64,000 nt of DNA. Source: Limnochorda sp. L945t (GTDB lineage Bacteria; Bacillota; Limnochordia; Limnochordales; Geochordaceae). Position numbers and translations under genes: made by a program. The notes beneath the pieces are model-generated. The model saw only the letters and a program-made list of their open reading frames with translations. It did not search any database and was not told the DNA's origin. The stretch lies in assembly GCF_035593305.1 (NCBI RefSeq), contig NZ_CP141615.1:3069722-3133721 (forward strand). Direction: 5' to 3'. The first letter of the stretch is position 1. Every line of letters begins with the position of its first letter. This document shows positions 26,624-29,083 of this stretch, piece after piece.

Positions 26624-27337
26624 ATGCAAGCACGTGGTCGGAGCCGTAGCTCTGAGCGTGGGAGGATAGCGCACCTAACTATGGTCATGGCGCTGGGTGC
26701 GCTACTGGGGATGGCGAGCCTCCTCCGGGGGGATCCCGGCCGTGCCATGGGCGTCGACCCGCTCTCGTGGCGGCCCTCGGGAGAGACGGAGGCACGGTTT
26801 CTCGGCATCGTGCGGCAGAGTGAGGACCACTCCTGCGGTTACGCCGCGGTCGCGACGGTGCTCGCGTCGCTGGGTCACCCTGTGAGCGAGCGGGAGCTCA
26901 TGGACGGCACCGGGCCCGGAGCGAGGTTGCGACCCGCGTCGGTGGCCGATCTGATCCGGGTGTTCGAGCGCCACGGCGTGCGGGCCCACGCGGTCCGCAG
27001 CAGTTGGGAGCAGCTCCGATCCTACTTCGCACGATTCACGCGGCCCGCCGTCGCGCTGGTCGACCACGGCCGTCGCCACTTCACGGTGCTGCTGGCGGCC
27101 GATGCCGACGCCGTGTACCTGGCCGACCCGAGCCTCGGGCACCGGGTCTTGAGTCCCACCCGCTTCCGGGCCGGCTGGACCGGCGTGCTCGTACTGGTCG
27201 ACCCCGGCGGCCGGCTGGGTTCTTCCGGATCCGGAAGCGAGACGGCGGTGGTAGAGGCGTTGCGGCAGATGCGCAAGAGACATCGCCTGCTCATGCGGTG
27301 GCCGGTGGGTGACGGCTGGGCAGGCGGCGGGAGGTGA
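26624..27337 (+). CDS. Exported C39-family cysteine peptidase without an ABC transporter
   Basis: A 237-residue protein. The ATG at 26624 follows GGAAGG with a 6-base gap. Residues 14-35 form an export signal or anchor (RIAHLTMVMALGALLGMA). The C39 peptidase domain (60-195) has the oxyanion Gln65, catalytic Cys71 in DHSCGYAAVATVL, His152 in RRHFTVLL and Asp168 in YLADPSL. C39 domains cut leader peptides after double-glycine-like sites and are normally fused to ABC exporters; here the peptidase is alone and apparently exported. It heads a cassette with an exported beta-rich protein, a bacteriocin-like precursor and a small membrane protein. Confidence 0.85.
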   Translation: MQARGRSRSSERGRIAHLTMVMALGALLGMASLLRGDPGRAMGVDPLSWRPSGETEARFLGIVRQSEDHSCGYAAVATVLASLGHPVSERELMDGTGPGARLRPASVADLIRVFERHGVRAHAVRSSWEQLRSYFARFTRPAVALVDHGRRHFTVLLAADADAVYLADPSLGHRVLSPTRFRAGWTGVLVLVDPGGRLGSSGSGSETAVVEALRQMRKRHRLLMRWPVGDGWAGGGR

Positions 27338-28176
27338 GGAAGGTGGCCTGGATCTCGAGGGACAGAGCTCACCGGGTGGCCCTGGTCGGCGTGACGGTTG
27401 CCTCCTGGCTTGGTCTCGGTGGCATGTCCGGCTCGGGGTGCCGCGCCGCCGGCTTCATCCAGCCCGGCCCGGTCGATGGGTGGAGAGTGCGTCTTTCGAT
27501 CGAGCGGGCCGCTTCCCCGGGAGGGACCTGGCCGGAGTGGCGGGAGGAGCCCACGTCCGTGGGCCTGGAAGGCTCTCGTCGCTGGGTGTGGAGCGCCGCA
27601 GGGGTGGAGTGGCGATCGACCGCCGGCGCTTCGTGGCGGGCAGTGCATCGACCCGGCCGGTCAGACCTCGAGTGGCCTCTCGGGCCGGACGCAGGGCCGT
27701 CCGGGAGCTGGGGCGTCCTTTTCGAAGGCGCCAGCCTCGCCCTCACCGCCTCCGCCCGCGACGAGGCGGACGCATCGAGCCGCGAGTGGAGCGTGGCGCT
27801 GGGAGTGCAGGCGCCCGACGACGGCGGGCCGTGGTATCCGGTGCAGACCATCGGGATGACATGGGCCTGGGTCATGGATCCCGCTTTGGTCGCCGTCGGG
27901 GGGGCGATGAGCGCGGGCGGGGGCAGCGCTCCTCTTGCCAGGTGGACTTTGCAGGGCCAGTGGGTCCACGTGCTTTCGGACCGCCTGGGCCTGCATGGTT
28001 CGGTGGAAGCGGGGTGGAGCCTCCCCGGCCGGGAGCTGGCGGCCCGCGTGGCGTCGGGCCTGACCCTCTTCCGGGACAGCCGGAAGGACGTATCGGTGAC
28101 GGTCTCGTGGAGGCTGGACGACCCGGGCGCCTATGCGCTCTGGGCGGAGTTGCAGTGGCCCTCGGACGGGGCGTAG
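27334..28176 (+). CDS. Exported beta-rich protein of the C39 cassette; function unknown
   Basis: A 280-residue protein whose GTG overlaps the peptidase stop by 4 bases (a GTG three codons later is also possible). The N-terminus has an export signal (ALVGVTVASWLGLGGMSGSGC), with a cysteine that is only a poor lipobox. The mature protein alternates short strands rich in Trp, Ser and Gly, for example WRVRLSIERAA and DVSVTVSWRLDD near the C-terminus. A small beta-barrel or beta-sandwich at the outer surface is plausible. No family was recognised. Its tight coupling to the C39 peptidase suggests a joint job. Confidence 0.6.
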   Translation: MRKVAWISRDRAHRVALVGVTVASWLGLGGMSGSGCRAAGFIQPGPVDGWRVRLSIERAASPGGTWPEWREEPTSVGLEGSRRWVWSAAGVEWRSTAGASWRAVHRPGRSDLEWPLGPDAGPSGSWGVLFEGASLALTASARDEADASSREWSVALGVQAPDDGGPWYPVQTIGMTWAWVMDPALVAVGGAMSAGGGSAPLARWTLQGQWVHVLSDRLGLHGSVEAGWSLPGRELAARVASGLTLFRDSRKDVSVTVSWRLDDPGAYALWAELQWPSDGA

Positions 28177-28226
28177 GCGGGGCCGGCAAGACAGAAGGCG
28201 TGTACGGGCGTGAAGGGAGGAGCACG

Positions 28227-28679
28227 GTGGCGACTCACGGTTGGCGGGCGGTAGCAGCAGCGGTGCTGGTGTCGGCGCTGGCAGTGGTGGTCCCCGCGCC
28301 GGCGGCCGGCGCGGCCGAGGTGGCAGGTCCCTTCGACCCGGCGGATTTTGGCGTGCCTCTGGGTCCGGAGGAGCAGCAACAGCTCTCGGGGGAGTGGTGG
28401 CCCATCGCCGTCGGAGCGGCTATCGGAGCCGTGGACGGCGCGTACAGCTACGCTCGCTCGTGCGGCTATCACCCACGCTCCGGGCGGTACTGGACCGGCA
28501 TGGCGGCCGCCGCCCTGGTCGGGGGCGGCCTGGGTGCCATCAACGGGAGCATCCAGGTCGGCATGCGCGCGGCCCGGGCCGGCCTTCAGGCGGGATACTC
28601 CATCTACTCGTGGGCCCGCACCAAGGTCGTCAACGAGATCAGCGGCAGGGCCTGGAGCAGCTGGAGCCGGCACTGGTAG
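28227..28679 (+). CDS. Bacteriocin-like precursor with Sec signal peptide and Gly-rich core
   Basis: A 150-residue protein starting at GTG 28227 behind a strong GGGAGGAG site. Residues 6-29 form a Sec signal peptide ending AAGA. Next comes an acidic, leader-like stretch ending LGPEEQQQLSGE (45-56), similar in layout to double-glycine leaders although the second Gly is Glu. It is followed by WWPIAVGAAIGAVDGAYSYA and, after a Cys79 region, AAAALVGGGLGAINGS. The WWP..G..GA repeats resemble class II bacteriocins. The tail (115-150) is basic and aromatic. Together with the C39 peptidase upstream this suggests a maturing peptide substrate. Antimicrobial activity is inference. Confidence 0.6.
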   Translation: MATHGWRAVAAAVLVSALAVVVPAPAAGAAEVAGPFDPADFGVPLGPEEQQQLSGEWWPIAVGAAIGAVDGAYSYARSCGYHPRSGRYWTGMAAAALVGGGLGAINGSIQVGMRAARAGLQAGYSIYSWARTKVVNEISGRAWSSWSRHW

Positions 28680-28732
28680 GGAGGACCCGGCGGGAGAGCG
28701 GCCCGCGCGTGGTGACGCAACGGTAGGAGGAG

Positions 28733-28757
28733 GGCGGCCGGCCCCGCCTTCTTCTTC
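28733..28757 (+). terminator. Terminator-like hairpin after the bacteriocin-like gene
   Basis: A stem GGCGG/CCGCC (28733-28737 with 28744-28748) around a 6-base loop is followed by TTCTTCTTC. It would end or thin transcription between the precursor gene and the small membrane-protein gene. Confidence 0.5.
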
Positions 28758-28801
28758 ACGTCGAGCAGCCTACCCCGATGGGCAGCGGAAGGGGCACACT
28801 C

Positions 28802-29083
28802 ATGGCAACGGCCAAGTCGAAGCCACGTCCACGGTTCTCCTGGTGGGGGTTACTCGTCTCCCAGCTGGCGGTCGTGCTGGGCACGGAGCTCGTGGTGTGG
28901 TGGGACGTCGGTTTGTTCTGGACTATCGGGTGCATGAGCTACGCCGCCGGTTACGCGATGTTCAACTTCCATCCCCCGTACAGGGAGCCCGCACGTCACC
29001 TTGCCATCACGTACGGGGTCTGGTTGGCCGGCATGGTCGCCGACAAGCTGATTCCCTTCCACCTGGTGCCTCCCGGGCCGTGA
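28802..29083 (+). CDS. Small membrane protein, candidate immunity protein
   Basis: A 93-residue protein with a basic N-terminus (MATAKSKPRPRF) and two or three membrane segments (WGLLVSQLAVVLGTELVVWW, FWTIGCMSYAAGYAMF, LAITYGVWLAGMVADKL). The ATG at 28802 follows GGAAGGGG; an ATG 24 bases upstream has no ribosome site. No family was recognised. Small multi-helix proteins next to bacteriocin genes are often immunity proteins, and that is the working guess here. A terminator-like hairpin separates it from the precursor gene. Confidence 0.6.
   Translation: MATAKSKPRPRFSWWGLLVSQLAVVLGTELVVWWDVGLFWTIGCMSYAAGYAMFNFHPPYREPARHLAITYGVWLAGMVADKLIPFHLVPPGP

What the first reader, a model, noticed from the sequence alone, without database searches (positions are those of the whole stretch)
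26624..29083. Cassette of exported C39 peptidase, exported beta-rich protein, bacteriocin-like precursor and small membrane protein
Seen: four consecutive plus-strand genes, the first two overlapping by 4 bases. The C39 peptidase has its full Gln-Cys-His-Asp set and a signal or anchor helix but no ABC exporter. The third gene encodes a 150-residue protein with a Sec signal peptide, an acidic leader-like stretch ending LSGE and a Gly/Ala-rich WWP..G..GA core like class II bacteriocins. The fourth is a 93-residue membrane protein. Known: C39 domains cut after double-glycine-like leaders, normally inside an ABC exporter. Inference: precursor and peptidase are exported separately by Sec and meet outside the cytoplasm, with the membrane protein giving immunity. 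I know of no described system built this way.
Basis: partly seen in the sequence, partly recalled or inferred. Interest (0 to 1): 0.8.

Follow-up and report, generated by a model that had tools for sequence, protein, structure and literature searches.

The report
Sec–C39–barrel secretion cassette for peptide
Four neighbouring genes in a two-membraned Firmicute appear to export a small cationic peptide in two steps, through the inner membrane by the standard Sec route and then, after a periplasmic protease trims it, out through a dedicated outer-membrane channel; the same arrangement turns up in other phyla and suggests what a long-puzzling protease of Pseudomonas amyloid secretion cuts.

Summary
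The window is from Limnochordia, diderm Firmicutes. Gene 1 is an exported C39 peptidase of the FapD type. Gene 2 belongs to a family related to FapF, the outer-membrane channel of Pseudomonas amyloid secretion; its profile matches an Aeromonas FapF at 2e-8. Gene 3 has a Sec signal followed by a leader in the register of double-glycine leaders (LSxxELxxVxG[E/G/A]). This tandem recurs in 31 of 73 Limnochordia genomes; 7 of 18 family members match Pfam Bacteriocin_IIc, and 30 of the 31 genomes also have an exported C39. Gene 4 is one of several unrelated small membrane proteins that change with the precursor core, as immunity proteins do. The same cassette occurs in Deinococcus, Acinetobacter and Tistrella plasmids; in one Deinococcus the precursor slot carries Ntox33 beside DUF4279, a reported toxin–immunity pair. 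Most likely: Sec export, periplasmic C39 cleavage, exit through the barrel. New are the Sec-plus-GG tandem, which accounts for how substrates reach a periplasmic C39, its spread across phyla, and a candidate FapD cut site in FapE. No step has been tested biochemically.

The parts
26624..27337 (+). Exported C39 cysteine peptidase of the FapD type (237 aa); Gln65 26816-26818, Cys71 26834-26836, His152 27077-27079, Asp168 27125-27127; hydrophobic N-terminal signal/anchor
   Evidence: PF03412 2.9e-20; best NCBIfam FapD 8.1e-18; 12/12 class relatives match FapD; catalytic set invariant
27334..28176 (+). Exported FapF-related outer-membrane beta-barrel, proposed exit channel (280 aa); start overlaps the C39 stop by 4 bases (GTGA)
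   Evidence: Family profile vs Aeromonas FapF 2e-8, Deinococcus OM barrels 3e-22; PDB hits only FadL-like 3dwo and FapF, 0.035-0.07; adjacent to C39 in most class genomes
28227..28679 (+). Precursor of a bacteriocin-like peptide (150 aa): Sec signal, GG-type leader, cationic Gly/Ala-rich core
   Evidence: Class-wide family; 7/18 members match PF10439, best 1.7e-6
28227..28316 (+). Sec signal peptide of the precursor (residues 1-30; AxA-type cleavage near residue 29/30, by eye)
   Evidence: Sequence; heuristic signal detection in homologues
28317..28394 (+). Leader ending P-LGPEEQQQLSGE (residues 31-56); G55 28389-28391 invariant in family, E56 28392-28394; predicted cut after E56 by register (or after G55)
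   Evidence: Register match to LSX2ELX2IXGG in 29 of 31 distinct precursors after setting aside one false hit; invariant G55
28395..28676 (+). Mature peptide WWPIAVGAAIGAV... (94 aa, predicted pI 10.4, 34% Gly+Ala, glycine-zipper-like)
28802..29083 (+). Small multi-spanning membrane protein (93 aa; alternative ATG at 28778), candidate immunity protein or partner
   Evidence: Homologues only in the 4 genomes with this precursor core, directly downstream of it; two other hits at E 0.006-0.008 taken as chance

Best explanation
This is a two-step secretion cassette for a small cationic Gly/Ala-rich peptide in a diderm Firmicute. (1) Sec exports the precursor, the C39 peptidase and the barrel protein across the inner membrane (inferred from signals). 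(2) In the periplasm the FapD-type C39 peptidase reads the second leader (hydrophobic positions -12 and -4, acidic -8, invariant Gly -2) and cuts after residue 56 (or 55) (inferred from family, register and co-occurrence). (3) The peptide leaves through the FapF-related barrel encoded next to, and in one family possibly fused to, the peptidase (inferred). (4) The small membrane protein encoded just downstream protects the producer (inferred, weakest step). The cargo is most likely a pore-forming, class-II-bacteriocin-like peptide, though a conserved surface or autolysis role is possible.
For: Exported, not ABC-fused C39: own genome has one C39 and it stands alone; FapD is the best family. Outer membrane: Omp85 and OEP in own genome; Limnochordia are diderm by microscopy (PMC11456536). 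Barrel: class profile hits FapF and OM barrels, sharing the DPxxL and F[AV]xNE motifs; 4-base overlaps with C39 in several families and a single C39-beta ORF in family f2. Leader: 29 of 31 distinct precursors in canonical register, against 0 of 29 other small signal-bearing genes in the same loci; Bacteriocin_IIc 1.7e-6. Co-occurrence in 73 genomes: both 30, exported C39 only 11, precursor only 1 (a 79% complete genome), neither 31; Fisher 2.6e-10, not corrected for kinship. Precursor plus small membrane gene directly downstream in at least 21 of 31, with protein type changing with core. Same cassette in a distant Firmicute (G152), Deinococcus, Tistrella, Acinetobacter. Deinococcus NW-56 carries Ntox33 in the precursor slot with DUF4279 beside it, a pair proposed as effector/immunity in PMC13304343.
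Against: Most leaders end GE, GA or GD, not GG; Glu at P1 is unusual for characterised C39 enzymes. In family f13 the precursor core and its genomic site are conserved across genera, unlike a fast-changing bacteriocin. Most precursors are not adjacent to C39. The window's own beta protein has no significant hit alone and a degenerate FapF motif; it lacks FapF's N-terminal coiled coil. The fused C-terminal region in f2 matches the beta family only weakly (hhalign probability 35%). AlphaFold models of genes 2 and 3 were too poor to use (pLDDT 34 and 46). No expression, cleavage or activity data.
Confidence: 0.66

Rival explanations
1. The precursor is not an antibacterial peptide but a conserved envelope or extracellular structural peptide (surface fibre, amyloid-like or glycine-zipper membrane element) secreted by the same Sec-C39-barrel route; the small membrane protein is an assembly partner.
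For: Fap is the best-known user of a FapD-FapF pair and secretes amyloid (PMC5557850). In family f13 precursor and C39-barrel genes sit at conserved sites with conserved cores. Some members weakly match glycine-zipper families.
Against: No amyloid repeats in the precursors; cores differ between families and are paired with different membrane proteins; a Deinococcus relative carries a toxin domain with its reported immunity partner; cationic mature peptides.
Confidence: 0.27
2. The acidic stretch is an ordinary N-terminal helix of a secreted glycine-zipper protein, never cut; the C39 protein acts on something else, for example the barrel.
For: P1 is mostly Glu; for FapD, cleavage of FapF has been suggested (PMC5557850); 11 genomes have an exported C39 without a detected precursor.
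Against: Precise register match to LSX2ELX2IXGG, independent Bacteriocin_IIc hits, genome-wide co-occurrence, and the same leader in other phyla beside exported C39 with unrelated cores.
Confidence: 0.1
3. The peptides act on the producer's own population, as programmed lysis factors or signals, as proposed for gonococcal Nap peptides.
For: Nap peptides share the C39 plus FapF-type machinery, did not inhibit other bacteria and promoted self-lysis (PMC11798529). Vertical conservation in f13 fits an internal role.
Against: No data on Limnochordia physiology; the toxin-immunity form in Deinococcus points to competition.
Confidence: 0.2

Closest known systems
Fap functional amyloid secretion (FapABCDEF), Pseudomonas (PMC5557850, PMC6173800)
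   Same: Periplasmic Sec-exported C39 peptidase (FapD, proteolytically required) plus a dedicated outer-membrane barrel (FapF); C39 and barrel families related by profile; FapE-position proteins in five proteobacterial loci have a signal followed by an LSxxELxx-RG[G/R] leader
   Different: No amyloid-repeat FapB/C, no FapA, no FapE domain in this locus; barrel lacks the coiled coil; cargo is a small Gly/Ala-rich cationic peptide with a membrane protein next to it
nap island of Neisseria gonorrhoeae (PMC11798529)
   Same: C39 peptidase (NapP), FapF homologue (NapF), GG-leader bacteriocin-like cationic peptides and an immunity-like gene; periplasmic cleavage proposed
   Different: Authors leave the inner-membrane step open (NapH suggested); here a Sec signal precedes the GG leader. 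Nap peptides are 16-36 aa against 94 aa here; horizontally acquired against vertically kept in part of the Limnochordia
Class II bacteriocins exported by peptidase-containing ABC transporters
   Same: C39 fold and GG-type leader register; PF10439 and TIGR03949 matches; precursor followed by a small membrane protein
   Different: No ABC exporter attached; cleavage would be periplasmic after Sec; P1 mostly Glu; separate outer-membrane barrel
Fil putative pilus system of Acinetobacter (FilB)
   Same: Exported C39; FilB is among the top NCBIfam hits
   Different: Scores below FapD; no pilus genes here

Membership tests
Peptidase family C39 | C39 domain with Gln, Cys, His, Asp catalytic set | tested here: met
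   PF03412 72.9 bits over a cut-off of 22; Q65, C71, H152, D168 invariant
Fap system | FapD itself (NCBIfam equivalog) | tested here: not met
   Best NCBIfam is FapD at 8.1e-18, but 64.5 bits against an equivalog cut-off of 330: FapD-like, not FapD
Fap system | FapF outer-membrane barrel | tested here: inconclusive
   Family profile matches an Aeromonas FapF at 2e-8 and PDB FapF at 0.06; no coiled-coil domain; no confident model
Fap system | FapB/FapC amyloid-repeat subunits in the locus | tested here: not met
   No further gene in the cassette and no repeat protein; neighbours are a metallo-beta-lactamase-fold gene and a plsY-like gene (identities by inspection)
Class II bacteriocin with double-glycine leader (PF10439) | Leader register LSX2ELX2IXGG and family match | tested here: inconclusive
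   7 of 18 family members match, best 1.7e-6; the window member itself does not match and has Gln at -7 and Glu at -1
Class II bacteriocin with peptidase-ABC exporter | C39 fused to an ABC transporter | tested here: not met
   Single C39 in the genome, standing alone in a 250-aa open frame
Class II bacteriocin | Antibacterial activity with dedicated immunity | not testable with these tools
   Only genomic indication
nap-type C39/FapF peptide secretion | C39, FapF-like barrel, GG-leader peptide and immunity-like gene together | tested here: met
   All four present and adjacent; same set in G152 and Deinococcus D7000; gonococcal sequences were not compared directly

The most novel reading that the evidence does not exclude
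Exported C39 peptidases with FapF-type barrels form a general, so far unnamed secretion route of diderm bacteria (Firmicutes, Deinococcota, Proteobacteria) whose substrates carry two N-terminal signals in tandem, a Sec signal and then a GG-type leader cut in the periplasm. Its cargo ranges from bacteriocin-like peptides and toxin domains with immunity partners to Fap amyloid components, so that the SP-proximal GG leader of FapE is the missing substrate site of FapD.
Probability: 0.5. Interest if true: 0.8.

Novelty: new variant of a known kind. Interest (0 to 1): 0.64.

Why it matters
Two open questions become directly testable. What does the essential periplasmic peptidase FapD cut? PMC5557850 and PMC6173800 leave it unresolved and a 2022 review still calls the role of FapD unclear. 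How do GG-leader peptides reach a periplasmic C39, which the nap paper leaves open? A Sec signal in front of a GG-type leader answers the second in principle and points to a specific bond for the first. It also extends C39-dependent peptide maturation from ABC exporters to a Sec-dependent outer-membrane route in early-branching diderm Firmicutes and gives a search handle (signal plus leader near an exported C39) for undescribed antibacterial peptides and toxins.

Tried and rejected
AlphaFold on the precursor and on the beta protein with two-sequence alignments gave pLDDT 46 and 34; no fold search was run on such models. Pfam and NCBIfam on the window's beta protein alone found nothing, so a class-wide profile was built. 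A precursor hit in G249 is a long von Willebrand-type protein in a genome without C39 and was set aside as chance. The apparent C39-beta fusion in G070 was an overlapping open frame, not a fusion. A sigma-70 promoter scan found none, and terminator-like hits do not separate the genes, so operon structure is argued from overlap and order only. Similarity of gene 4 to NfeD (0.009) is below the Pfam cut-off and was not used. Considered and rejected: gene 2 as a soluble partner (barrel evidence), and C39 as an ABC-exporter remnant (best family is FapD, single gene).

Full report
What is there. The window lies in the 3.3 Mb genome of a Limnochordia bacterium; a sister Limnochordaceae MAG (Bu05) carries the locus at 93-99% protein identity. 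All four are intact in the sister genome with dN below dS, clearly so only for the precursor and membrane-protein genes. The host has an outer membrane: its genome encodes Omp85 and OEP proteins, and cultivated Limnochordia show a didermic wall (PMC11456536). 'Exported' therefore means periplasm or beyond.

Gene 1. It is a stand-alone C39 peptidase, the only one in the genome, with the catalytic set invariant in relatives. The best curated family is FapD, the periplasmic C39 of Pseudomonas amyloid secretion (8.1e-18, far under the equivalog cut-off), ahead of NHLM ABC and FilB; all 12 class relatives tested match FapD. Fifty of 73 class genomes have a C39 hit; by inspection of the fetched loci about 41 have an exported stand-alone form and the rest only ABC-fused forms.

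Gene 2. Alone it matches nothing. Its relatives lie directly beside the exported C39 in most class genomes, often with the same 4-base overlap; in family f2 C39 and a beta-rich region form one open frame, although that region's relation to the family is only modestly supported. The 27-member profile hits only outer-membrane proteins in the PDB, a FadL-like protein and FapF, at 0.035-0.07; it matches an Aeromonas FapF at 2e-8, a Vibrio one at 6e-6 and Deinococcus barrels at 3e-22 (E-values set for 1000 sequences), one of the latter over Pfam's OMP_b-brl cut-off. The shared motifs are DPxxL and F[AV]xNE. I take gene 2 as a FapF-related barrel, degenerate in this genus.

Gene 3. Relatives found by profile occur in 31 of 73 class genomes and, among 398 genomes spread over the phylum, almost only in the class. 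They share a layout: Sec signal, short linker, a 12-residue block in the register of the canonical LSX2ELX2IXGG leader (motif as given in PMC3897388) with invariant Gly at -2 and mostly Glu, Ala, Gly or Asp at -1, then a Gly/Ala-rich core, cationic in those computed. Seven of 18 match Bacteriocin_IIc. None of 29 other small signal-bearing genes in the same loci has the block; the pattern was tuned on the family, so this control is indicative. Classifying C39 as exported or ABC by inspection, exported C39 and precursor co-occur in 30 genomes, C39 alone in 11, precursor alone in 1 (79% complete), neither in 31 (Fisher 2.6e-10; kinship not corrected; at family level 11 families have both, 4 neither, 1 C39 only). 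Most precursor genes are not adjacent to C39; they are adjacent in the window's family, G066, G003, G030 and G152.

Gene 4. Homologues are confined to the four genomes with this core, always directly downstream of it. Other core types have other small membrane proteins in that place: about 105 aa with four spans in f13, 61-66 aa with two in f2. A partner that changes with the cargo is what cognate immunity looks like, but this is inference.

Outside the class. A distant Firmicute (G152) has precursor, 60-aa membrane protein, C39 and beta protein in a row. Plasmid-collection records show the same: Deinococcus D7000 in that order; Tistrella; Acinetobacter TR11 and SAAs474, the last with two precursors sharing signal and leader but differing in core. 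In Deinococcus NW-56 the precursor is signal, leader LSDAELDEVKGE and Ntox33 (3.7e-23), followed by DUF4279 (1.6e-16), C39 and an outer-membrane barrel; Ntox33-DUF4279 is proposed as a T6SS effector-immunity pair (PMC13304343). In fap-type loci of Vibrio, Photobacterium, Aeromonas, Polymorphobacter and Croceicoccus the FapE-position protein has a signal followed by such a leader, for example LTDDEMSSLRGG. PMC5557850 found FapE the only Fap protein without N-terminal peptides and left the FapD target open.

Mechanism and comparison. The evidence favours Sec export, periplasmic C39 cleavage after residue 56 (by register; 55 is possible because Glu at P1 is odd), and exit through the barrel. Shown: gene content, family relations, conserved tandem signals, co-occurrence. 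Inferred: cleavage, channel function, toxicity, immunity. Fap and the nap island (PMC11798529) are the same general plan, so this is a new variant, not a new kind. The addition is the explicit Sec-plus-GG tandem, its phylogenetic breadth and the FapE prediction. Literature searches found no paper joining polymorphic toxins with C39 peptidases and outer membranes, within an open-access library only.

Limits. Signal peptides were called by eye and by a simple rule; models were unusable; the gonococcal nap sequences were not fetched for comparison; there are no experiments.

Noticed in passing
L144:4572-5219, L151:5645-6154, L150:5698-6264, L143:4561-5244, L142:4567-5283: FapE-position proteins of five proteobacterial fap-type loci carry a signal followed by a GG-type leader (LADGELAHLRGR, LTDDEMSSLRGG, LSNSSLEEYRGG, ITDYELATMRGG, LSEEVLARQRGG), a candidate FapD cut site.
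   Followed up: partly
L148:3883-6277: Deinococcus sp. NW-56 plasmid: Ntox33 toxin domain behind a Sec signal and GG-type leader, DUF4279 gene, exported C39 and outer-membrane barrel in a row.
   Followed up: partly
L145:3454-6534: Acinetobacter sp. SAAs474 plasmid: two precursors with the same signal and leader but different cores, a 117-aa gene between them, and FapF-like barrel and C39 on either side.
   Followed up: partly
L161 (G152:C63) and L137 (G152:C201): One Firmicute genome carries both a Fap-like C39/FapF locus with small exported proteins and a bacteriocin-type cassette.
   Followed up: no
L037:6167-7525, L044, L045: In family f2 the exported C39 and a beta-rich C-terminal region are a single open frame, a natural fusion.
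   Followed up: partly
L065, L069-L072, L105, L108: In family f13 the precursor and a 105-aa multi-span membrane gene sit at a conserved site between an aminotransferase-like gene and an EamA-type transporter gene across genera, suggesting vertical inheritance.
   Followed up: no
L003:4570-4980 and L004:4640-4993: Streptomyces loci brought in by the C39 query have a classic EISDAELDxISGG precursor about 1 kb upstream of their C39 match.
   Followed up: no
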